From: Bolinopsis microptera
Taxonomy: Eukaryota; Ctenophora; Tentaculata; Lobata; Bolinopsidae
Direction of reading: 5' to 3'
Assembly (NCBI RefSeq): GCF_026151205.1
Contig: NC_087075.1
Coordinates: 1,543,911 to 1,607,910, forward strand
DNA: 64,000 nt
How positions within the stretch are numbered: the first letter of the stretch is position 1; each line of letters opens with the position of its first letter. A program made the position numbers and the translations under genes. The notes below the pieces were generated by a model. The model saw only the letters and a list, made by a program, of their open reading frames with translations. It did not search any database and was not told the DNA's origin. Positions 6,901 through 24,900 of the stretch are shown here, piece after piece.

Positions 6901-9900
6901 GGAATTTTATTGTTTTGACCCGTCATCCGATGCTGCTTTTTCGATAGAATTTTGCAAATTTTGTGTGCTCTTTGCTTTTCATAAAGGTCGTTGGTTTATC
7001 TTTTTCCCATTCTAGATTTCAAGAAGCAAGAGAGTGCTTCATGGTTGATCTCAAGGTCATGATGAATTAAGCATCAGAATCATCACTAAAAACCATGAGT
7101 GCCATAGGGACACCGCAACAAATAGTTCCTAATGATTCGGAATATCCACGAGTCCTAGCCAAAAAGGTTTCAGTTGGCTGTTGCCAAAAACTGTTTGGAA
7201 ATGAGTCTGTAAGTATATTGAAATGTTTGGAAATGAGCCTGTAAGTATATTGAAATGTTTGGAAATGAGCCTGTAAGTATATTGAAATGTTCGGAAATGA
7301 GCCTGTAAGTATATTGAAATGTTTGGAAATGAGCCTGTAAGTATATTGAAATGTTTGGAAATGAGCTTGTAAGTATATTGAGCTTAATCTCAGGTTAATT
7401 TGACATTGAATGTTAAACAAAAGTAACATCTATTACTATATTCTAATCTAGAATAGAATTATGGAACATTTGCAGACGGTACAATGTCTTTGTTCAACAC
7501 GGTCACCCCTTTTCACACATCTCTTTTCTTCTGCACTCGCACGAGCGTGACTATCAGAGCATCGGGCGTGACTCGGAGAATTCCTACTAAAATCCCGTAT
7601 CTCACATCCTTCATCGGATTTGGTTTAATTAATGATATGAATGCTATACTACTGGATCCGCGGGCTGGGCGAATACAAAACATTAATTAACAGCACCGGA
7701 GTGACCATTGTATGGTGTCTACTGTCTAAACACGCTGCATCCACTGTTGTATGTCTCACACCTTACACAGGTCTCCGCTTTCCTTTGTTACGTCTTGCTC
7801 TGCATGTTCTTACGAAATAGTTTCTGTGGTTGCTTTAAAATAGTTTCTGTGGAACCTAGTAGAGGCTACACACTCTAGGTAGTGATGTAAGGGAGACCTC
7901 TCCTCGTCACGTCCAGCTAATGAAAGAAAGATTGTCTTCCTTTAATAATGACTCAGCGTACTTGTTACTGCACGATGTAAATGCTAGTTCGGACTATGGT
8001 TCCACAGGCAATAGTGCTCCCTCAGTCACAGTCAGCTACCCAGTTGATGAGGATGATACTTTGAGTGATTCTAATAGTTATTCAAAAAAGGTACTCAGAT
8101 TTACACTTTCCTGGTCGTTCCTTGAACTTGAAGCCTATTTCAATATTTTTATAACACCATAGATTGCATTTATCATTATGTCCAAGTCTCATCTTGTCTA
8201 GACGATTGGTAGCACATACTGAGCGACATATTTTATATTATGTTAAGTTCAATGATAAAATACCCCGATTACACCCAATGAACCGAGTTATTCTAGAGGG
8301 TCCAATGTTGGACCTTGAGGGACCCCGTGGTGAATGGTAATACTTGCTGCTTGTATTGCCACACTACATATTATATTGCATATTATACAACATATTACTG
8401 TGGTCATACTACATATTATACTACATATTATATTACATATTATACTACATATTATACTATATATTAATTACATATTATACTACATATTATACTACATATT
8501 ATACTACATATTACTGTGGTTATTCTACATATTATATTACATATTACTGTGGGTGTACTACATAGTAGTATTATACTACATATTACTGTGGTTATACTAC
8601 ATATTATACTACAACTGTGGTTATACTACACTAAACTACATCCTCGTTTATTTCCATCGAGAATCGCCTAAAGTAAAGTAATACTACATACAGTGTTATA
8701 CTACATAGTAGTATTATACTACATATTACTGTGGTTATATTATATGTTCTACTACTGTGGGTAATGAAATTGTTCTTCAGGAGGACTACGATTACTCCCT
8801 TCACTACTTCCGAGCTGATCCAGATAAACGGATAGGTATATTGATTTAACATAACCAATAAACATACTTGCTTATTGCTGCTATCTTAGAAAATCATGGG
8901 AAGGTCCTTCTTGAACGATAATACGAACGTTTAAACTAGAACCATATCTGCCTTAAAGATTGGAATATACATTGGTTGGCAACCTTTTGGAAAATGCTTG
9001 AATCTAACAATGATATATCTCAGACTTTGTTCTCTCATATAGAGAAGTGATAGAGGATCTAGAAGAATGCGGAGAGAAAACTCCCATCCAGAAGACGGGA
9101 AAAGAACTTGACGCTAAGAAGAAAAGGAGGATCTTTGAAGAAAACCTTGAGAGGAAGGGACTTTCTATTGAACGCGTTAGTAACACTGACGTCACAGTGA
9201 CAGAATTATTGCACTGGAATCTCTTTTATAGTAGCTCTAATACCTTAATTCGTATTACACTGGCTCCATATCGAGAAATGTTTAATTTTTACATGTTACT
9301 ATACATGTTACTATACATGTTACTATACATGTTACTATACAAGTTACTATACATGTTACTATACATGTTACTATACATGTTACTATACATGTTACTATAC
9401 ATGTTACTATACATGTTACTATACATGTTACTATACATGTTACTATACATGTTACTATACATGTTATAGTTATAACAATCTTTATCAGGAAACATATGAC
9501 AAGAATGAGGGTTCGGACATTAAGAGGATTGTTTACGTGAAGGTTCACGCAACCAAGCAGTGCCTTTTCGAGTATGCAGAACATCTGCAAGTCAAGAAGC
9601 TGCTAAAGGTTTGTAAATACGCCATCCCTTGTTCTCTTTATATGTTCTTTAATCTTTATGTGTTCTTCATAATAATATGTTCTTTATGGGTGATTGATGT
9701 GTTCTTTAAGTAACTCGGTATGCTGTTCGGTGTTCAACTACAATTTTGCTGATAAGTCTTTTGAATAATCTATCCCCTGTCCGTATATTCCGTGCTGCTC
9801 ATTTCAAGTTAATACTAATAAATTGAGGTTATGAACAGAATGGCAGTAAAACCCCACGAGTGAGTACAGATAATCGCTTCACTTACTGTTCAGGCTGTTT

Positions 9901-12900
9901 TGCTTTGCATCCCGACATTATGGCAAAAATCAAAGTCGGAGCTTATTTTGATTCGGTTTTAATTTGCAACTCTACACTCTACAACGTGGTCAAGCTTGAA
10001 ACTGAGATTTCCTGGATGAGAAAAACAATGTATTATAGTTGTGTTAAATAGCATTACATAGTGAGAGGCCTTAAGGTGACCTCGTCTAAAATAATATGAA
10101 ATTGACGAGTGACGGGTTGTTAACTTCAGATAGATCCTATGAAGATATTTAGAGATGAGTATAAGGAGGAGAGGAGTTGGTTTGATTGGAAGCTCTTCTC
10201 ATCTCTACACAGGTACTAACACTAGATACAGTGTACTAACAGTGTTATCTAGCTATTCTCATCTCTACACAGGTACTAACACTAGATACAGTGTACTAAC
10301 AGTGTTATCTAGCTATTCTCATCTCTACACAGGTACTAACAGTGTTATCTAGGTACTAACACTAGATACAGTGGCGTAACGAAGGGCCCCGCTGACCCCG
10401 TTAACAGTAGCTAACATTCATTATGTCACAAGAATTAATTAGGAGAACCTCAAATTACTGGTAGTTTACTGGATACCATTACTGGTAATTTCCGTAAATC
10501 GTACGAACCTTATCAAGCGAACTATTGCAGGGGTGAAAAGTTTTACAAAGATGAGATATGGGATGAAATGAAGAATCACAAGATCAGTGCAAGATTCGCT
10601 CAAAACAAAGCTGAAAGGTTAGTTTTAATTTTACACAAAATGCAAATTTCTGATGCAAACCCTTCATTCGCTCTGATAGTCTATTCAGTTTTAATCAGTA
10701 ATAATTGGTATTAATAAGCAATAGTCTGCTTCTTATTCTCAGCGGACTAATTTGTTGTAGAATCCGTGCTTTCAGTGTTTACTATGTTGTCTGAAGGTTT
10801 ACACAATACTGTAAAACAATAAAATGGGCTTACTTACATTCATCTGTAGAAATACATGTTACAATTTTGCTTTCTAGGAAATTGCTCTCTGGGATGTTAG
10901 TGGAAAATCCTAGTAACAATAAGAACTAAAATTTGGTTTTTGTATGATTGAGAAACCATAAAAATCAAGCAAGTAAAAATAAAGTACCTTCGTAACGTTA
11001 ACACTGTGTTCCCTGTGTGACAAATGAAGGGAAGTCAATGTGACGTCATAGTGACGTCACTGTTTCTGTCACCGTGACGTCACTGCAAAATAACCTTAAC
11101 ACTGTCTGAAGGTTCATAAACCACGACGAGCCGGGATTCTTTACCACGGGGGAGAGGTCTTACATCGTCTCCTACATTCTAGAAGAGACTCCTTTTACAG
11201 AAGAGAATAAATCCGGTCAGAAAGATAACGTCGGTGAGTGCAACTAAAAAAGAAACAAATTTATAACTCTCTAACTCTCTGTATATAGTACAGACAAATG
11301 CGATTTTTATTTTCAAATGGAATTTTGAAATTTTGAAATTGTGGATTATTTTATCCAAATTCCTTTTACATAAATATTATAATGTAAATACTAATATAAA
11401 TAATAATGCAGGTATAGAGTATCTGCTGCAAGATGATGTTTATTCCGCCTGGTATCCTCTCCATGATGTGAGTGTTTAGTATTATTACGCTATACTGCTT
11501 ATCATACACCCTCATTGGTTATATGCGTACAATGATGTTAATCGTTGTGTTAGCGCTTAATTGTATTCAAAGAATGAAAGTATTAACTAATGTTCTGTAC
11601 AGCAAGCTGGTCTCAAGTCCAGACACCATCATTGTTCTAGTCTTGACGTAAACTGTTGAATATTGTTCAACTGCTGAATATTGTTCAACTGCTGAATATT
11701 GTTCAGCTGCTGAATATTGTTCAACTGCTGAATATTGTTCAGCTGCTGAATATTGTTCAACTGCTGAATATTGTTCAACTGCTGAATATTATTCAACTGC
11801 TGAATATTGTTCAACTGCTGAATATTGCTCAACTGCTGAATATTGTTCAACTGCTGAATATTGTTCAACTGCTGAATATTGTTCAACTGCTGAATATTGT
11901 TCAACTGCTGAATATTGTTCAACTGCTGAATATTGTTCAACTGCTGAATATTGTCCAACTGCTGAATATTGTTCAACTGCTGAATATTGTTCAGCTGCTA
12001 AATATTGTTCAACTGCTGAATATTGTTCAACTGCTGAATATTGTTCAACTGCTGAATATTGTTCAACTGCTGAATATTGTTCAACTGCTGAATATTGTTT
12101 AACTGCTGACTATTGTTCAACTGCTGAATATTGTTCAACTGCTGAATATTGTTCAACTGCTGAATATTATTCAGTATAAAAACTGCACTCCATTAACAAT
12201 ATTTAACTAAAGTTCCGTCCCAGGGACCTTATGAGTTGCCCAATGTGGAAGATCGGCCCGAGGATGAGAAAGTATTCCTTAACGACAGACAGGTAAAAAC
12301 ACATTACTATGGTTACACAGTTACTATAGTTACTATAAACACAGTGAATTAACATTATTATAGTAATGATAAACACATTAGTAGTACTACTACTACTATA
12401 TATTGGTAACACAGCTAATTGAGATGTTAACTGCAGGTTCTGAGCATGTTCTGGTCGGATTGGGGGAGATGGTACAAGTACCAGCCTCTCAACAGAGTCA
12501 GAATCTACTTCGGAGATACTGTCGCCATGTACTTCGCCTGGCTCGGTACGTTATAGAGTGTAGAGTGTAGAGTGTAGAGTGTAGAGTGTAGAGTGTAGAG
12601 TGTAGAGTGTAGAGTGTAGAGTGTAGAGTGTAGAGTGTAGAGTGTAGAGTGTAGAGTGTAGAGTGTAGAGTGTAGAGTGTAGAGTGTAGAGTGTAGAGTG
12701 TAGAGTGTAGAGTGTAGAGTGTAGAGTGTAGAGTGTAGAGTGTAGAGTGTAGAGTGTAGAGTGTAGAGTGTAGAGTGTAGAGTGTAGAGTGTAGAGTGTA
12801 GAGTGTAGAGTGTAGAGTGTAGAGTGTAGAGTGTAGAGTGTAGAGTGTAGAGTGTAGAGTGTAGAGTGTAGAGTGTAGAGTGTAGAGTGTAGAGTGTAGA

Positions 12901-15900
12901 GTGTAGAGTGTAGAGTGTAGAGTGTAGAGTGTAGAGTGTAGAGTGTAGAGTGTAGTGTAGAGTGTAGAGTGTAGAGTGTAGAGTGTAGAGTGTAGAGTGT
13001 AGAGTGTAGAGTGTAGAGTGTAGAGTGTAGAGTGTAGAGTGTAGAGTGTAGAGTGTAGAGTGTAGAGTGTAGAGTGTAGAGTGTAGAGTGTAGAGTGTAG
13101 AGTGTAGAGTGTAGAGTGTAGAGTGTAGAGTGTAGAGTGTAGAGTGTAGAGTAGCAATACTACCAGGAAAACTTTTTTCGAGAATCAAATTGGATCATAA
13201 TTTGGATTTAATGAAAAAATTACTTGAATCTTTATGTAATTTTCAATCAGGTTTTTACACAAAGTTACTGATAGTTCCAGCGGTTGTTGGTAGCATTGTC
13301 TTCGCCTACGATATCTACTCCATCATCGGCAACGAAGTTGTGTAAGTTATAAACTTTTCATACAAATTGAACTCTCCCGATCTAGATTAAAATTGATTAA
13401 ATGTCATTGATTATTGTGCTTCCAAAGAATTTGCACGTTCTCATAAAGTACTGAGGTTTAACTGTTAAGTGGCATATTTTCATTTTATTAAAAAATGTGC
13501 TAAGTGGGAATTATTACATCATTGATATCCAAAAAAGGTATACAATTTTCATTTTTGGCACCAATGACAACTCAAAATGCTAACTTAAAATAAACTTAAA
13601 ATAAAGCAACATAATTCTGGTTACAGAGACGACTTCTGTAACTCCACATATAACCTATACGGGGCAGCTGATATCAGGAGCAGAAGGCTGTGCTCCCTGT
13701 GTGACAAATGCAGGGAAGTCAATGCCACCTCTCACTGCCTCAAGTTCACTGTGAGTCTCTGTCCGAGTGCCGTCATAGTGACGTCACTGCTTCTGTCACA
13801 GTGACGTCACTGCTTCTATCAATGTGCGGTTACTGCTTCTATCAATGTGCGCCTCTACATGTTCTTAATCCAGCAGCTGAACACAGTGGCGTAACAAAGT
13901 GCCCCGCCGACCCCGCTGTGCGGGGGGGGGGGGGGGGGGCGTTTCGCTCTAGAAACACCCTTGTTTAGAGATTTTACCGGTGTATCCTCTAAATTCATCT
14001 AATTTGTTCAATTTTAGGGAGGGGCGCCAAAAGGGGAGGGGGCGCCAACAGGGGGCGCCTTTTCAGCGGGGGGGGGGGGGGGGGGGGGCGCCAACAAGCA
14101 ACGTTACGCCACTGGCTGAACATGGTTCTGTGTGAGGGGGTGTGGTTTCTGTAAGGGTGGAATTCTATTGTTACATTCTTTCGGCAGAATCACATGGAGC
14201 TGTGCCGCATTTCAGGGGTACAGTGCCGAATATTGCTTCTATACCTGGGCGTTGCTGCTCTGTCATACTTACAGTTTACTTACAGTTTATTTACAGTTTA
14301 CTTACAGTTTACTTACAGTTTACTTACAGTTTACTTACAGTTTACTTACAGTTTACTTACAGTTTACTTACAGTTTACTTACAGTTTACTTACAGTTTAC
14401 TTACAGTTTACTTACAGTTTACTTACAGTTTACTTACAGTTTACTTACAGTTTACTTACAGTTTACTTACAGTTTACTTACAGTTTACTTACAGTTTACT
14501 TACAGTTTACTTACAGTTTACTTACAGTTTACTTACAGTTTACTTACAGTTTACTTACAGTTTACTTACAGTTTACTTACAGTTTACTTACAGTTTACTT
14601 ACAGTTTACTTACAGTTTACTTACAGTTTACTTACAGTTTACTTACAGTTTACTTACAGTTTACTTACAGTTTACTTACAGTTTACTTACAGTTTACTTA
14701 CAGTTTACTTACAGTTTACTTACAGTTTACTTACAGTTTACTTACAGTTTACTTACAGTTTACTTACAGTTTACTTACAGTTTACTTACAGTTTACTTAC
14801 AGTTTACTTACAGTTTACTTACAGTTTACTTACAGTTTACTTACAGTTTACTTACAGTTTACTTACAGTTTACTTACAGTTTACTTACAGTTTACTTACA
14901 GTTTACTTACAGTTTACTTACAGTTTACTTACAGTTTACTTACAGTTTACTTACAGTTTACTTACAGTTTACTTACAGTTTACTTACAGTTTACTTACAG
15001 TTTACTTACAGTTTACTTACAGTTTACTTACAGTTTACTTACAGTTTACTTACAGTTTACTTACAGTTTACTTACAGTTTACTTACAGTTTACTTACAGT
15101 TTACTTACAGTTTACTTACAGTTTACTTACAGTTTACTTACAGTTTACTTACAGTTTACTTACAGTTTACTTACAGTTTACTTACAGTTTACTTACAGTT
15201 TACTTACAGTTTACTTACAGTTTACTTACAGTTTACTTACAGTTTACTTACAGTTTACTTACAGTTTACTTACAGTTTACTTACAGTTTACTTACAGTTT
15301 ACTTACAGTTTACTTACAGTTTACTTACAGTTTACTTACAGTTTACTTACAGTTTACTTACAGTTTACTTACAGTTTACTTACAGTTTACTTACAGTTTA
15401 CTTACAGTTTACTTACAGTTTACTTACAGTTTACTTACAGTTTACTTACAGTTTACTTACAGTTTACTTACAGTTTACTTACAGTTTACTTACAGTTTAC
15501 TTACAGTTTACTTACAGTTTACTTACAGTTTACTTACAGTTTACTTACAGTTTACTTACAGTTTACACCCGCTATACCTAGTTATACTATCTACATGTGC
15601 TGCACTGTACCTCCGCCAATATCTATATGCCAATTGCATCATACTGCTACGCTTAATAGAGCTAATAGAGGGTGACAAGTGACGTCACGCACCACGTTTT
15701 ATGACGTCACACACCACGTGTTATGACGTCACGCACCACGTTTTATGACGTCACGCACCACGTTTTATGACGTCACACACCACGTGTTATGACGTCACAC
15801 ACCACGTGTCATACTGCTACGCTAAATAGAGCTAATTCCTTAATCTTCTCTAAAACTGCAACTAAACGCTTGTTGGAGTGTAAACAAGGTGCTTGTAGCC

Positions 15901-18900
15901 GGGGGATGACATTTTAACCATTATTTGATGGGAATTTTAACCTTATGAATAGCTGCATGATCATGCTAAAACTTGGTGTTTTGATGATCAGGAAAGTCAC
16001 TATCGGTATTCACCTAAAATGATCAGATCGTCATCTCCCCAACATGGTACTTTTAAGGAATTGTTATAGTTATGGTAGAAACTTAAATTAAGATGTGAAA
16101 TTGGTAAAAAATAGTGTTACATGAAATATCATCATAACTTAAAAAGTAAACGACTTAAAGCTTCCAAACTATCATACGCCCTCAGAAATTTGATGATTGC
16201 GAGATTTTAATGGGGTCCTTGACCACGAAACTTCCATCGGGAGCCGAGATACGAAATTTCATCCAACCGTGTATTGCGATTCAATATTTGCAGGATCAAA
16301 ACGACTAAATTCATATAAAATTAAGCCTGACAATGTGCTGGACATTATGGCTTGTTAACGATGTGGAGAAGGTACCATGATAACCGTGGTACCATGGTTA
16401 CCATGGTAGCATGGTTACCATGGTTACCATGGTTACCATGGTTACCATGGTTACCGTGGTACCATGGTAACACTGTTATCTGGAACTCATTTCCTGTTCA
16501 ACTCCAGGGGAGGTGTTTGTGAAGAAGACACTTCCGGGGCTCTGATGTGTTCAGCGTGTGATAGGTGTATTGATGAACCTCTTGCTATGTACTGCTTCTC
16601 TACCTATGTGAGTGGTTCTGCAGTCTTATATGCAGAGGATAAACTGTGAAACTGTTTCACTAAAATGCAGGGGATAAAGCAAACTGTTTCACTAAAATGG
16701 CACGACTGCCCGGACTGCAGCATTTCACCATTTAGTTTTGTAGTGGTGGTGTACTACTGATCAGTTCACTGATTCACTACAAGAGTATTATCAAAGTAGG
16801 AGTGATCATTAGTTCCTCAGCGCAGCTTATTCGATCGTTAGCATTTATTCAAAAGCAAATCGGCAAAAATCCTATTTAAATTTATCCAAACAAAAAAGCA
16901 CGGCGGTTTATTGGATAAAATGCATTCCCTTCCCGGGAACATATAACAAATACCTTTTGTCACAAAGCCGTACAAACATGAACACTTGAACGCAAACCTA
17001 AAACGCTTCCTTCCTTGTATTGCCCCAACTCAGCAATATAATAGCGCTACCTCAGTGACGCGGTGTGACGTCACAACTCAGCAATATAATAGCGCTACCT
17101 CAGTGACGCGGTGTGCGATGAAAACAGCAGCAATACTGAAGCGCACTGTGACGTCACTGTGTCTCACTGTGACGTCACTGTGACGTCACAACTCAGCAAT
17201 ATAATAGCGCTACCTCAGTGACGCGGTGTGCCTCACTGTGACGTCACTGTGACGTCACAACTCAGCAATATAATAGCGCTACCTCAGTGACGCGGTGTGT
17301 CTCACTGTGACGTCACTGTGACGTCACAACTCAGCAATATAATAGCGCTACCTCAGTGACGCGGTGTGCCTCACTGTGACGTCACTGTGACGTCACAACT
17401 CAGCAATATAATAGCGCTACCTCAGTGACGCGGTGTGCGATGAAAACAGCAGCAATACTGAAGCGCACTGTGACGTCACTGTGTCTCACTGTGACGTCAC
17501 TGTGACGTCACAACTCAGCAATATAATAGCGCTACCTCAGTGACGCGGTGTGTGATGAAAACAGCAGCAATACTGAAGCGCACTCCCCAATATGCCCGGC
17601 TTGTGATGAAGAGTGTGACGTCACTGTGTCTCACTGTGACGTCACTGTGACGTCACAACTCAGCAATATAATAGCGCTACCTCAGTGACGTCACTGTGAC
17701 GTCACAACTCAGCAATATAATAGCGCTACCTCAGTGACGCGGTGTGTGATGAAAACAGCAGCAATACTGAAGCGCACTCCCCAATATGCCCCGCTTGTGA
17801 TGAAGAGTGTGATATCGTGGACCTCAAATCATTTTGTAATCTATTTATGGTGAGAGGCGTGATATGGAATGATCAGTTTAACTGCATGAGTGGTCTGGAG
17901 TGCATTAAGTTTGATGTTTTTATATTTTATTTCATCGTTTTGCATCTCTTGTTTATTTATATCTCTTGTTTCAGATGCATGGTTTGATTTGTTCCGTTTT
18001 TAGTTATAAACCGTTCAGGACTGCTTTGCAGAAGCAGCTTGGTAAATTCCACAGGTTATAATTATAGTTATGCTAATCCAAACGGAAACAGATTTAGTGG
18101 TTTTCTTCGCTGTCGAGTTGAATATCTATTCCTAAGGAATAGTGTTCCTTTTTAAAAGTTCCTGTTTTTTAAACCTCTCCAACATATTATAACTATAAGG
18201 GTGAAATCTGAACACTAAGAGTGATGTCTTTATAACCTTTGTTATTCATTATGCTGAAATTGCCCGATTTTCGATTCCAATGCAGGAGCTGTAGCACGCA
18301 TGAATCTTCATTGCATTATATCCTTATGATTTCATGTATTATTTCCTTATGATTTCATGTATTATTTCCTTGTGCATTGTGATTTCCGTATTATTTGAAG
18401 AAATGAGCTATTAAATTTGAAAACCTGGAAAAATTTTCATGAAATCGAAATTATGATATCAATTTTTTGTGATATGAAAATCTTCCTTAGCGTTTGACAT
18501 TAATTATTTACAGGTGGCGAACGCGTTTAATAACGGGGGTTCAGTATTCTTTGCAATATTCATCTCCTTTTGTTACAGGTGGCGAACGCGTTTAATAACG
18601 GGGGTTCGGTATTCTTTGCAATATTCATCTCCTTTTGTTACAGGTGGCGAACGCGTTTAATAACGGGGGTTCAGTATTCTTTGCAATATTCATCTCCTTT
18701 TGTTACAGGTGGCGAACGCGTTTAATAACGGGGGTTCAGTATTCTTTGCAATATTCATCTCCTTTTGTTACAGGTGGCGAATGCGTTTAATAACGGGGGT
18801 TCAGTATTCTTTGCAATATTCATCTCCTTTTGTTACAGGTGGCGAACGCGTTTAATAACGGGGGTTCGGTATTCTTTGCAATATTCATCTCCTTTTGTTA

Positions 18901-21900
18901 CAGGTGGCGAATGCGTTTAATAACGGGGGTTCAGTATTCTTTGCAATATTCATCTCCTTTTGTTACAGGTGGCGAACGCGTTTAATAACGGGGGTTCAGT
19001 ATTCTTTGCAATATTCATCTCCTTTTGTTACAGGTGGCGAACGCGTTTAATAACGGGGGTTCAGTATTCTTTGCAATATTCATCTCCTTTTGTTACAGGT
19101 GGCGAACGCGTTTAATAACGGGGGTTCAGTATTCTTTGCAATATTCATCTCCTTTTGTTACAGGTGGCGAACGCGTTTAATAACGGGGGTTCAGTATTCT
19201 TTGCAATATTCATCTCCTTTTGTTACAGGTGGCGAACGCGTTTAATAACGGGGGTTCAGTATTCTTTGCAATATTCATCTCCTTTTGTTACAGGTGGCGA
19301 ACGCGTTTAATAACGGGGGTTCAGTATTCTTTGCAATATTCATCTCCTTTTGTTACAGGTGGCGAACGCGTTTAATAACGGGGGTTCAGTATTCTTTGCA
19401 ATATTCATCTCCTTTTGTTACAGGTGGCAAACGCGTTTAATAACGGGGGTTCAGTATTCTTTGCAATATTCATCTCCTTTTGTTACAGGTGGCAAACGCG
19501 TTTAATAACGGGGGTTCAGTATTCTTTGCAATATTCATCTCCTTTTGTTACAGGTGGCGAACGCGTTCAATAACGGGGGTTCAGTATTCTTTGCAATATT
19601 CATCTCCTTTTGTTACAGGTGGCGAACGCGTTCAATAACGGGGGTTCAGTATTCTTTGCAATATTCATCTCCTTTTGTTACAGGTGGCGAACGCGTTTAA
19701 TAACGGGGGTTCAGTATTCTTTGCAATATTCATCTCCTTTTGTTACAGGTGGCGAACGCGTTTAATAACGGGGGTTCAGTATTCTTCGCAATATTCATCT
19801 CCTTTTGTTACAGGTGGCGAACGCGTTTAATAACGGAGGTTCAGTATTCTTTGCAATATTCATCTCCTTTTGTTACAGGTGGCGAACGCGTTTAATAATG
19901 GGGGTTCAGTATTCTTTGCAATATTCATCTCCTTTTGTTACAGGTGGCGAACGCGTTTAATAACGGGGGTTCAGTATTCTTTGCAATATTCATCTCCTTT
20001 TGTTACAGGTGGCGAATGCGTTTAATAACGGGGGTTCAGTATTCTTTGCAATATTCATCTCCTTTTGTTACAGGTGGCGAATGCGTTTAATAACGGGGGT
20101 TCAGTATTCTTTGCAATATTCATCTCCTTTTGTTACAGGTGGCGAACGCGTTTAATAATGGGGGTTCAGTATTCTTTGCAATATTCATCTCCTTTTGTTA
20201 CAGGTGGCGAACGCGTTTAATAACGGAGGTTCAGTATTCTTTGCAATATTCATCTCCTTTTGTTACAGGTGGCGAACGCGTTTAATAACGGGGGTTCAGT
20301 ATTCTTTGCAATATTCATCTCCTTTTGTTACAGGTGGCGAATGCGTTTAATAACGGGGGTTCAGTATTCTTTGCAATATTCATCTCCTTTTGTTACAGGT
20401 GGCGAACGCGTTTAATAACGGGGGTTCAGTATTCTTTGCAATATTCATCTCCTTTTGGTGTGAGTCTGCTTTAAGATTTAATTATATTTGTATTTATGAT
20501 TCCATATTTGCACCGTGTACCAATATTTATTTGGGAAAAACTGTGCAAGGAAAATATTTGGCTTTAAATTTCGAAGACATGAATGATGATCGGATTCAAA
20601 GGATTGTTCCTAAAACAATTACTATACTCTAAACGCATACACAATAAGTTCGCTCTTCTCAAATAAGAACAAAGTTAATTAACGATTTACCATTAATTTA
20701 CCGTTAATTAACGATTTACCCGAGCTACAAATTACATGTCTGATGTTTCAATAATTAATTAATTACAAAACCATCAGCTGCGTTCTTCCTGGAGTTCTGG
20801 AAACGCTACCAGATAACTTTAGCGTTCCTCTGGAGCAAAGCTGACTTTACGGACGCCCAGGAACCGGCCAGACCTGAATATGCGGTCACGTGCGAGGAGG
20901 ACGACGTCAGGTATGAGCAACAATAGTAGGGGGAGGGGGTTCTACTTCAACAATAGTAGGGGGAGGGGGTTCTACTTCAACAATAGTATGGGGAAGGGGT
21001 TCTACTTCAACAATAGTAGGGGGAGGGGGTTCTACTTCAACAATAGTAGGGGGAGGGGGTTCTACTTCACTAATAGTAGGGGGAGGGGGTTCTACTTCAA
21101 CATTAGTAGGGGGAGGGGGTTCTACTTCAACAATAGTAGGGGGAGGGGGTTCTACTTCAACATTAGTAGGGGGAGGGGGTTCTACTTCAACAATAGTAGG
21201 GGGAGGGGGTTCTACTTCAACAATAGTAGGGGGAGGGGGTTCTACTTTAACAATAGTAGGGGGAGGGGTTCTACTTCAACAATAGTAGGGGGATGGGGTT
21301 CTACTTCAACAATAGTAGGGGGAGGGGGTTCTACTTCAACAATAGTAGGGGGAGGGGGTTCTGCTTCAACAATAGTAGGGGGAGGGGGTTCTACTTCAAC
21401 AATAGTAGGGGGAGGGGGTTCTACTTCAACAATAGTAGGGGGAGGGGGTTCTACTTCAACAATAGTAGGGGGAGGGGGTTCTACTTCAACAATATTAGGG
21501 GGGAGGGGGTTCTACTTCAACAATAGTAGGGGGAGGGGTTTCTACTTAACAATAGTAGGGGGAGGGGGTTCTACTTCAACAATAGTAGGGGGAGGGGGTT
21601 CTACTTCAACAATAGTAGGGGGAGGGGGTTCTACTTCAACAATAGTAAGGGGAGGGGGTTCTACTTCAACAATAGTAGGGGAGGGGGTTCTACTTTAACA
21701 ATAGTAGGGGGAGGGGGTTCTACTTCAACAATAGTAGGGGGAGGGGTTTCTACTTTAACAATAGTAGGGGGAGGGGGTTCTACTTCACTAATAGTAGGGG
21801 AAGGGGTTCTACATCAACAATAGTGGGGGGAGGGGGTTCTACTTCAACAATAGTAGGGGGAGGGGTTCTACTTCAACAATAGTAGGGGGAGGGGGTTCTA

Positions 21901-24900
21901 CTTCAACAATAGTAGGGGGAGGGGGTTCTACTTCAACAATAGTAGGGGGAGGGGGTTCTACTTCAACAATATTAGGGGGAGGGGGTTCTACTTCAACAAT
22001 AGTAGGGGGAGGGGGTTCTACTACAACAATAGTAGGGGGAGGGGGTTCTACTTCAACAATAGTAGGGGAGGGGGTTCTACTTCAACAATAGTAGGGGGAG
22101 GGGGTTCTACTTCAACAATAGTAGGGGGAGGGGGTTCTACTTCAACAATAGTAGGGGGAGGGGGTTCTACTTCAGTAATAGTAGTCAGCTAATTGACTGT
22201 ATAGTACTGACTACTGATTATGTTGGATTTAACTTTCAATGTTTCAGGTTTAATCCGATCACGTTACGATTTGAGCCGTACCGAGAGCCGAGTATTTTCA
22301 AAACTATCACAGCTGTATCTGTTGTCATCATCACAGTAAGTGGGAAATGGTTTTGGGTTCTACTAATATATCCTATTTTTACACCCACAAATCTAATATT
22401 CTGCTTCACACTGGACTAAATCTAATATTCTGCTTCACAGTTCACACTGGACTAAATATAATTTTCTGCTTCACACTGGACTAAATATAATATTCTGCTT
22501 CACACTGGACTAAACTGTGAATATTTTCAGGTTATTGTAGTCATTATAACCCTGATCTCTATCATTATCTACAAAATAGCGGTGTACTCTATATTCGACC
22601 ACATGTCTAACGGAAGCCTGAAACCCTACGCTGCTACGTTATCATCTGTCTCAGGGTCTATACTACAACTTATAGCCATTACCGTCCTATCTCAGGTATA
22701 CTACTCTTCTTTTGTGTGTTTTTGTTTATTTATAAATAAAATCAGTGTTGAAAAAAACCATTTCAACTTGACATGGTTGTATGATAGTTGATTAATTTGA
22801 AATGGAGTTTCAAGAAATCAGCGACTCTTCAGTCCTGTTCACTATATCTGCAATCTAAAATATGCTATCTCAATGCAGGTCTATGCTTGGTTGGCGGAGA
22901 AGATCACTCTTTGGGAAAATTATCGAACAGAAACTGAATTCCAGAACAATCTGACTGTTAAAAGATTTATCTTTGAGTTTTTTAATTACTACGGCTCATG
23001 TTTCTACATCGCATTTGTCAAGGGAAAGTAAGTTGAGCTTCTGATAGAAGTTACTATTAAATCCTTTGTAGCTTAACAATGCTGATTAATGTTTATCTGA
23101 TCAACTATATTTAGCGGCTTCAAAAACTGTGAAATAGTCGTATCAAAAGCATTTGTACTGTTTAGCGTTTTAAAAAAAAATCAAATTGTGAGATAAACTT
23201 CTCTAACAGTATTTAACACGCGAAACCTCTCAGTTTCGCTGGTACTCAGTATTTAACACGTTACCTCTCAGTTTCGCTTGTACTCAGTATTTAACACGTG
23301 ACCTCTCAGTTTCGCTGGTATTTAACACGTTACCTCTCAGTTTCGCTTGTACTCAGTATTTAACACGTGACCTCTCAGTTTCGCTGGTATTTAACACATG
23401 ACCTCTCAGTTTCGCTGGTACTCAGTATTTAACACGTGACCTCTCAGTTTCGCTGGTGTTTAACACATGACCTCTCAGTTTCGCTGGTACTCCGTACAAC
23501 TACACGCGGATATTCGGAATACGTTTGGACACGTGTGGTCCTGGTGGGTGTCTAGGAGAGTTAGCTGAGAACTTGGCCATTATCTTCCTTGGTAAACAGA
23601 TCATGAACAACTTCCAGGAACTCCTCATACCTATGATGAAGAGCTGGTGGTCACGGAGAAAGTCTAATCAATATCAGGTCAGTTGATTATTGATTCTCTA
23701 TTTATTAATCCATAAAAATTATACATTCTTCTCTAAACACAATAAAGTTTGTCTACTGAGATGAAGGACAGTTCAAAGTAATCAAACCAAACTCTCACCA
23801 AGTCTGGCACAAATAAAGAACAAATATCAATATCAATGACCAATAAAACCCTCACACAGTCGGGTACTGATAAAGAACAGATATCAATATCCATGACCAA
23901 TAAAACTCTCACATAGTCGGGTACTGATAAAGAACAGATATCAATATCCATGACCAATAAAACCCTCACACAGTCGGGTACTGATAAAGAACAGATATCA
24001 ATATCCATGACCAATAAAACTCTCACATAGTCGGGTACTGATAAAGAACAGATATCAATATCCATGACCAATAAAACTCTCACACAGTCGGGTACTGATA
24101 AAGAACAGATATCAATATCCATGACCAATAAAACTCTCACACAGTCGGGTACTGATAAAGAACAGATATCAATATCCATGACCAATAAAACTCTCACATA
24201 GTCGGGTACTGATAAAGAACAGATATCAATATCCATGACCAATAAAACTCTCTCACAGTCGGGTACTGATAAAGAACAGATATCAATATCCATGACCAAT
24301 AAAACTCTCTCACAGTCGGGTACTGATAAAGAACAGATATCAATATCCATGACCACACCATGGGAGGCTGATAACGATCTGGCTGAGCAGGAGAACCTTT
24401 TCCCAGAGTACTTGGAAATGGGTGGGTTCTTTTACTTTAACTGATTTTTAGTGATTGCTTCATTACTAATTTTAATGTTTACTCAACTAAACACCAATTT
24501 TTAACTGATTTTGAATTTTCTTAAGATAACTTTAAGCTCCACATTGAGTACTACAACGATAACTTATTTTCAGTTATTCAGTACGGTTTCGCAACAATGT
24601 TTGTTGTTGCTTTCCCTGTAGCCCCACTATTTGCTCTCATAAATAACGTGGTGGAGATTAGACTTGATGCTAAGAAATACACAGAACTACTCAAGAGACC
24701 AATACCTATCAACTGCATGAGTATAGGTATGTAATACCATATAAGGGCATCACGTGATACTGCAACTACCATATTAGGGCATCACGTGATACTGCAACTA
24801 CCATATTAGGGCATCACGTGATACTGCAACTACCATATTAGGGCATCACGTGATACTGCAACTACCATATTAGGGCATCACGTGATACTGCAACTACCAT

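What the first reader, a model, noticed from the sequence alone, without database searches (positions are those of the whole stretch)
13627..17849. Three mutually exclusive exons for the anoctamin cysteine-rich loop
Exons 15A, 15B and 15C each enter in phase 2, leave in phase 0, have lengths of 1 modulo 3 (124, 100, 115) and encode the same cysteine framework, with different spacing and surface residues. Using none or two would break the frame, so the transcript must choose one. Such a set in the first extracellular loop of an anoctamin is not something I know to be described. 15A and 15B have CxxCxxC and 15C has CxxCxxxC, so the disulfide pattern or gating and regulatory interactions could differ.
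Basis: partly seen in the sequence, partly recalled or inferred. Interest (0 to 1): 0.85.

Follow-up and report, generated by a model that had tools for sequence, protein, structure and literature searches.

The report
Three swappable exons in comb-jelly anoctamin
A comb-jelly gene for a calcium-activated membrane protein (anoctamin) carries three alternative versions of the exon that encodes its outer cysteine-rich loop, and the reading frame only works if a transcript uses exactly one, so the animal probably makes three forms that differ in surface charge and sugar sites.

Summary
Window 13627-13750, 16508-16607 and 17735-17849 are three consecutive exon-like units (124, 100, 115 nt) with AG acceptors and GT donors, phase 2 in and phase 0 out, each with the five-cysteine framework of the anoctamin TM1-TM2 loop. 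They lie in an ANO1/ANO6-type gene of a lobate ctenophore, very likely Bolinopsis microptera. The strongest new evidence is a copy of the gene's 3' part on another chromosome, about 4% diverged in introns. It keeps all three exons, phases, cysteines and splice sites; 7 of 9 differences in them are silent (P about 0.003 together, weak singly). Nine other loop-bearing anoctamin loci have one loop exon each. Best explanation: a mutually exclusive exon cluster from old tandem duplication, policed by reading frame. No RNA was available, and no conserved competing RNA pairing was found. Such clusters are a known kind, predicted once in a ctenophore myosin gene; my searches listed none in an anoctamin. 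Side finding: arrays repeating the 3' splice site plus exon start precede exons 15C, 16, 21 and 22, like amphioxus "mirages".

The parts
13251..13341 (+). Exon '14': second half of TM1, ends in phase 2 (GT|gtaagt)
   Evidence: tblastn to paralogue and ANO1 alignment; identical in C11 copy
13627..13750 (+). Exon 15A, 124 nt: VDDFCNSTYNLYGAADIRSRRLCSLCDKCREVNATSHCLKFT; net charge +1, two N-glycosylation sequons
   Evidence: C11 copy differs by 2 silent and 1 replacement
16508..16607 (+). Exon 15B, 100 nt: VGGVCEEDTSGALMCSACDRCIDEPLAMYCFSTY; net charge -5, no sequon
   Evidence: C11 copy differs by 2 silent changes only
17735..17849 (+). Exon 15C, 115 nt: VDAVCDENSSNTEAHSPICPACDEECDIVDLKSFCNLFM; net charge -8, one sequon; ANO1-type CxxCxxxC; weakest splice sites of the three
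   Evidence: C11 copy differs by 3 silent and 1 replacement
17042..17734 (+). Tandem array upstream of 15C: with the real one, 8 copies of its acceptor plus exon start; the copy at about 17541-17618 repeats 78 nt of the exon (four of its five cysteines) but has no donor
   Evidence: single acceptor in C11 copy
18508..20457 (+). 65-bp x 30 array: each unit holds the exon 16 acceptor and nearly the whole of exon 16; only the last copy is joined to a donor
   Evidence: a single copy in C11
20399..20459 (+). Exon '16' (start of TM2), entered in phase 0, 61 nt
7879..12546 (+). 5' part of the gene: dimerisation domain and first half of TM1, eight recognised coding exons (borders not all curated, start codon not found)
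20778..26572 (+). 3' part to the stop codon: exons 17-28, twelve recognised (exon 24 only from its reading frame); TM9-TM10 loop cysteine in exon 25
23396..23492 (+). Two copies (one real) of the exon 21 acceptor plus exon start at the end of a tandem array (23207-23496)
23867..24350 (+). 57-bp array with 9 copies (one real) of the exon 22 acceptor plus exon start

Best explanation
An anoctamin gene of the ANO1/ANO6 group with a three-member cluster of mutually exclusive exons for its cysteine-rich first extracellular loop. The exons arose by tandem duplication of one loop exon and diverged under selection for the five cysteines. Each transcript joins exon 14 to one of 15A, 15B or 15C and then to exon 16. 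Any other combination shifts the frame, so such transcripts would be degraded or give truncated protein. All three loops should dock to the same constant cysteine in the TM9-TM10 loop, which is encoded once in exon 25. They present different surfaces: net charge +1, -5 or -8, two, none or one N-glycosylation site, and CxxCxxC or CxxCxxxC spacing. Shown: the exons, phases, cysteines, splice dinucleotides, and conservation in a diverged copy. Inferred: exclusive splicing, choice by cell type or stage through splicing factors, the disulphides, and a change of channel or scramblase behaviour through the extracellular domain.
For: Exons, phases and splice sites. Anoctamin identity, and alignment of the five loop cysteines of the 15C form and of the exon-25 cysteine with ANO1. 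Calcium-site segments NN..E, EYLEM and NNVVEIRLD match ANO1 (their role is recalled). The C11 copy keeps all three: 7 silent and 2 replacement differences, neutral silent fraction 0.28, P = 0.003; eleven other exons give 22 silent to 2 replacement, P = 1e-10. Pairwise identity of the three exons outside the cysteines is only 3/29, 7/33 and 7/29, yet 15 of 15 cysteines, three open frames and six splice sites remain. Nine of nine other loop-bearing loci have one loop in the stretches fetched, and two of these nine (L014, L016) have lost one of the five cysteines, so the framework does decay where it is not needed. Charges and sequons.
Against: No RNA was seen. Taken singly the silent-change tests are weak (15A P 0.25, 15B 0.06, 15C 0.06). 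No docking/selector RNA pairing stood clear of shuffles at the same place in both copies. Introns between the exons are 2,757 and 1,127 nt and all sites are GT-AG, so steric or spliceosome-type incompatibility is unlikely to enforce the choice. 15C has weak splice sites (acceptor 1.3, donor 3.4 bits). The C11 copy lacks the 5' exons, so its present function is doubtful.
Confidence: 0.8

Rival explanations
1. Only one loop exon (15A or 15B) is in normal use; the others are relics kept by chance.
For: No RNA evidence; single-exon tests are weak; 15C has the weakest splice sites and, in the window copy, a repeat-filled region before its acceptor.
Against: All three are open with every cysteine and splice site in both genomic copies; 15B and 15C show 5 silent to 1 replacement differences between copies; their deep divergence from one another with the cysteines kept points to long selection.
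Confidence: 0.12
2. The exons are alternative but not strictly exclusive: double inclusion or skipping is made on purpose as an off-switch coupled to decay of the message.
For: Frame logic makes skipped or doubled transcripts non-productive; no physical device that enforces exclusion was found. This adds to, rather than replaces, the best explanation.
Against: There is no evidence for regulated unproductive splicing; it was not testable here.
Confidence: 0.25
3. The C11 copy is not a long-standing paralogue but an allele misplaced in the assembly, or a fresh pseudogene made from a divergent allele, so that the silent excess reflects selection on alleles of one gene.
For: The C11 copy starts about 100 nt before exon 14, and a whole-genome protein search found no other close copy of the 5' exons; long-read assembly with gap closing and haplotig purging (PMC10232365, passage).
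Against: No N runs in the window or in the 59.9 kb of C11 examined; the block is inverted within a 20.8-Mb contig, with flanks that do not match the window and some matches out of order. Either way the constraint on 15A-C stands.
Confidence: 0.3

Closest known systems
Mutually exclusive exon cluster 0 of the Mnemiopsis leidyi muscle myosin heavy chain gene Mhc2 (PMC3912159, passages read)
   Same: Tandem homologous exons that differ mainly in a loop, predicted from sequence, in a lobate ctenophore
   Different: Motor protein, two exons; not an anoctamin
Tandem duplicated exons in other ion channels (NALCN, CACNA1C, slowpoke, para; PMC9741552, passages read)
   Same: Tandem exon duplication that swaps a functional segment of a channel
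   Different: Different channel families; ANO, ANO1 and ANO5 do not occur as words in the main text of that paper, nor ANO or ANO1 in that of PMC5740500 (supplements not seen)
ANO1 (TMEM16A) alternative segments a-d (recalled; a 2009 paper on ANO1 splicing seen only as a reference)
   Same: Splicing tunes an anoctamin
   Different: Segments that are skipped or included in cytoplasmic parts, not exclusive copies of the extracellular loop (recalled)
Amphioxus 'mirages': minisatellite-like tandem copies of exon-intron boundaries (PMC3087553, passages read)
   Same: Arrays repeat the 3' splice site and exon start upstream of the real exon; copy number varies between copies of the gene
   Different: Here in a ctenophore, up to about 30 copies, at four exons of one gene; amphioxus also has donor-side cases, none seen here (0 of 18 exons with a GT donor in my list)

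Membership tests
Mutually exclusive exon cluster (criteria as in PMC5740500, passages read) | Neighbouring internal exons with sequence similarity | tested here: met
   8/34, 12/38 and 12/34 identities including five aligned cysteines; all found by one profile (which was trained on them)
Mutually exclusive exon cluster (criteria as in PMC5740500, passages read) | Same reading frame, length differences a multiple of three and at most 60 nt, GT-AG sites | tested here: met
   124, 100, 115 nt; differences 24, 9, 15; all GT-AG; phase 2 to 0
Mutually exclusive exon cluster (criteria as in PMC5740500, passages read) | Joint inclusion prevented or frame-breaking | tested here: met
   Each is 1 mod 3; two, three or none break the frame
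Mutually exclusive exon cluster (criteria as in PMC5740500, passages read) | Splice-junction reads from each exon that bridge the others | not testable with these tools
   No RNA data held
Mutually exclusive exon cluster (criteria as in PMC5740500, passages read) | Docking/selector RNA pairing (a mechanism of some clusters only; recalled and listing) | tested here: inconclusive
   Intron 15C with the start of intron 15A beat six of six shuffles in both copies, but at different places (-39.3 against -32.8 in C4; -29.5 against -28.5 in C11); three other pairings beat all six in one copy only; the rest did not
Anoctamin / TMEM16, ANO1-ANO6 group | Anoctamin domain and dimerisation domain | tested here: met
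   PF04547 463 bits, PF16178 157 bits
Anoctamin / TMEM16, ANO1-ANO6 group | Long TM1-TM2 loop with five cysteines and a sixth cysteine in the TM9-TM10 loop | tested here: met
   Alignment of the 15C form to ANO1 chains; six cysteines in this domain of TMEM16A according to PMC5470873 (passage); disulphides not tested
Anoctamin / TMEM16, ANO1-ANO6 group | Calcium-activated ion or lipid transport | not testable with these tools
   Calcium-site segments look kept in the alignment; function not assayed
[quoted passage not shown]
   Acceptor-crossing 28-mer copies, real one included: 15C 8, exon 16 29, exon 21 2, exon 22 9; also one paralogue

The most novel reading that the evidence does not exclude
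A ctenophore uses three-way exclusive splicing to recode the charge, glycosylation and cysteine spacing of the extracellular domain of a calcium-activated channel or scramblase, the part whose role is still open. The exon copies were born from 'mirage' minisatellites that keep duplicating 3' splice sites with exon starts in this genome; a partial fourth 15C copy (four of five cysteines, no donor) is an exon in the making.
Probability: 0.3. Interest if true: 0.75.

Novelty: new member of a known kind. Interest (0 to 1): 0.5.

Why it matters
A review calls the functions of the long extracellular loops of TMEM16A/F-type proteins unclear, although disrupting their disulphides gives dysfunctional channels (PMC8640346, passage read). 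A natural three-way swap of exactly that module, with everything else constant, is a ready-made experiment. It would also add an exclusive channel exon set in a candidate sister phylum of all other animals, and it shows exon-boundary minisatellites outside amphioxus.

Tried and rejected
RNA docking/selector pairing was sought between introns 14 or 15C and the regions upstream of 15B and 15C or downstream of 15A. Energies of the best 60-nt pairs were set against six mononucleotide shuffles per pairing. Intron 15C with the start of intron 15A exceeded all six in both copies, but at different places; three other pairings exceeded all six in one copy only. I do not count this as a mechanism. The 10-base palindrome GTGACGTCAC flanks 15B in C4 (21 sites between exons 14 and 16) and could loop 15B out, but C11 has 3 sites, none between 15B and 15C, so this is not conserved. 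Search for further loop exons in the window and the fetched loci: beyond the known ones only the partial 15C copy and, by DNA, a 37-nt piece of 15A at 11004-11040. COX1 search of the assembly for species naming: none found. One scan of viral contigs with exon 20 for stray relatives: 9 pattern matches, none confirmed. Structure prediction was not used: a 40-residue loop alone would not fold meaningfully, and the spliced protein is not letter-for-letter in the DNA. The pattern-based chance estimate is post hoc. Intron divergence used only locally alignable columns (at least 70% over 21 columns), which lowers it.

Rows set aside: exons 19 and 23 were left out of the P value for the other exons (a 9-nt in-frame insertion; my exon 23 frame was off by one there); done by hand they give 4 and 1 silent, 0 replacement. 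Exon 24 was not compared. With exon 19 the sum over the 16 exon units compared is 34 silent to 4 replacement plus the insertion. In one search five of 23 listed ends are not GT (four approximate 5' exons and the stop exon), so donor counts rest on 18.
Full report
What the window is. The genome has 264.65 Mb in 232 contigs. A table in PMC11797021 gives Bolinopsis microptera as 265 Mb with N50 20.8 Mb (passage); contig C11 here is 20.83 Mb. The table lists 346 scaffolds, so the held set would be a subset. An ionotropic glutamate receptor from the genome has the entries named ML032222a as its closest solved relatives, at moderate similarity; that this is a Mnemiopsis name is recalled. I therefore take the genome as a lobate ctenophore, very likely B. 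microptera; this is an inference.

The gene. Exons from 7.9 to 26.6 kb on the + strand give a protein with the anoctamin dimerisation and channel domains, closest among solved structures to ANO1, then ANO6. The alignment keeps the calcium-site segments (their role is recalled). The 3' half has clean GT-AG borders.

The three exons. Borders, lengths and phases are exactly as reported. The loop of 15C aligns cysteine for cysteine to ANO1, and 15A and 15B align to 15C and to the paralogues' loops. 15C has the ANO1 spacing CxxCxxxC; 15A and 15B have CxxCxxC, which the paralogue at C5:3.36 Mb (L018) also has. That paralogue has an acceptor at the same place, 10 nt before the first cysteine. Net charge by K+R-D-E is +1, -5 and -8; N-x-S/T sites number two, none and one. 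A chance origin is very unlikely: 3 found against 0.01 expected (post hoc pattern).

Are they alive? A block matching window 13.1-41.2 kb lies inverted on C11. It holds all three loop exons with the same phases and identical splice hexamers. Between copies, 15A differs by 2 silent and 1 replacement, 15B by 2 and 0, 15C by 3 and 1. With the intron substitution spectrum the neutral silent fraction is 0.28, so 7 of 9 has P = 0.003 together, though 0.25, 0.06 and 0.06 singly. The exons have 9 changes where the intron rate predicts 14.7. Exons 14, 16-18, 20-22 and 25-28 show 22 silent to 2 replacement. The three exons share only 3/29, 7/33 and 7/29 residues outside cysteines, so they look old, yet no cysteine, frame or splice site is lost. 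As a natural control, nine other anoctamin loci with a recognisable loop have a single one in the stretches fetched, and two of these (L014, L016) have lost one of its cysteines. I conclude that all three exons have most likely been kept by selection.

A puzzle. The C11 copy begins about 100 nt before exon 14, and a protein search of the genome with the 5' exons found close matches only in the window, plus exon 14 on C11. If C11 had been a neutral pseudogene since it split off, many replacement changes would be expected, but few are seen. Either it is used as part of another gene, or most of the divergence is allelic and older than the duplication, or it is a misplaced allele. All three readings leave the constraint on 15A-C standing.

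How exclusion could work. Reading frame is the only device shown. Introns of 2,757 and 1,127 nt and uniform GT-AG sites make steric or spliceosome-type incompatibility unlikely. Base pairing of the Dscam kind was sought; nothing stood out at the same place in both copies. 15C has weak sites and 15B strong ones by a small matrix built from the gene's other exons, which suggests a default choice and a regulated one; this is inference.

Arrays at exon starts. Copies of the 28-mer that spans the acceptor, real one included, number 8 for 15C, 29 for exon 16, 2 for exon 21 and 9 for exon 22. The donor-spanning 28-mer is single for all 18 listed exons that end at a GT. The exon 16 array has 30 units of 65 bp; the last is joined to a donor, and C11 has a single copy. 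In a paralogue (L016) six partial copies precede the real exon in the stretch shown, whereas its near twin L017 has one copy. These fit the amphioxus 'mirages' (PMC3087553, passages). One 15C copy in its array holds 78 nt of the exon with four of five cysteines but no donor, so such arrays could be the nursery of loop exons; this is conjecture.

Literature. Searches for mutually exclusive exons with anoctamin or TMEM16 returned 2, 27 (20 listed), 46 (any three of six terms; one listed) and 3 papers. No listed title described such exons in an anoctamin, and in the one anoctamin review opened for that phrase it occurs only in a reference about CaV1.2. Ctenophore with anoctamin: 4 papers, none on splicing by title. 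The library holds open-licence PMC papers only. A ctenophore myosin cluster is published (PMC3912159, passages). Hence: a new member of a known kind.

Noticed in passing
window 18508-20457: A 65-bp x 30 array repeats the exon 16 acceptor and nearly the whole exon; the pyrimidine tract before each later acceptor is the coding sequence of the preceding copy, and the junctions read TTACAG|GTGGCG, an AG|GT juxtaposition.
   Followed up: partly
window 23396-23492 and 23867-24350: Further arrays that copy an acceptor plus exon start, at exons 21 and 22 of the same gene.
   Followed up: partly
L016 (C4:11859000-11868900, minus strand) against L017 (C4:13044500-13054400): Two closely similar anoctamin loci; one has at least six tandem partial copies of an exon with its acceptor, the other a single copy. 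L016 has also lost the fourth loop cysteine.
   Followed up: partly
C11:15766000-15825900 (L036, L035, L015, L032-L034): Inverted interchromosomal duplicate of window 13.1-41.2 kb, truncated just before exon 14, yet with mainly silent differences in the anoctamin exons.
   Followed up: partly
window 11004-11040: A 37-nt piece of exon 15A, 95% identical, in an upstream intron of the same gene, followed by GTGACGTCAC-rich sequence as after 15A.
   Followed up: partly
window 13778-17696: 21 copies of the palindrome GTGACGTCAC between exons 14 and 16, against 3 in the C11 copy.
   Followed up: partly
C11:610500-704900 and C11:7254000-7263000 (L010, L011, L013, L014, L021): A group of closely similar anoctamin loci; the loop of L014 lacks the first cysteine.
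   Followed up: no
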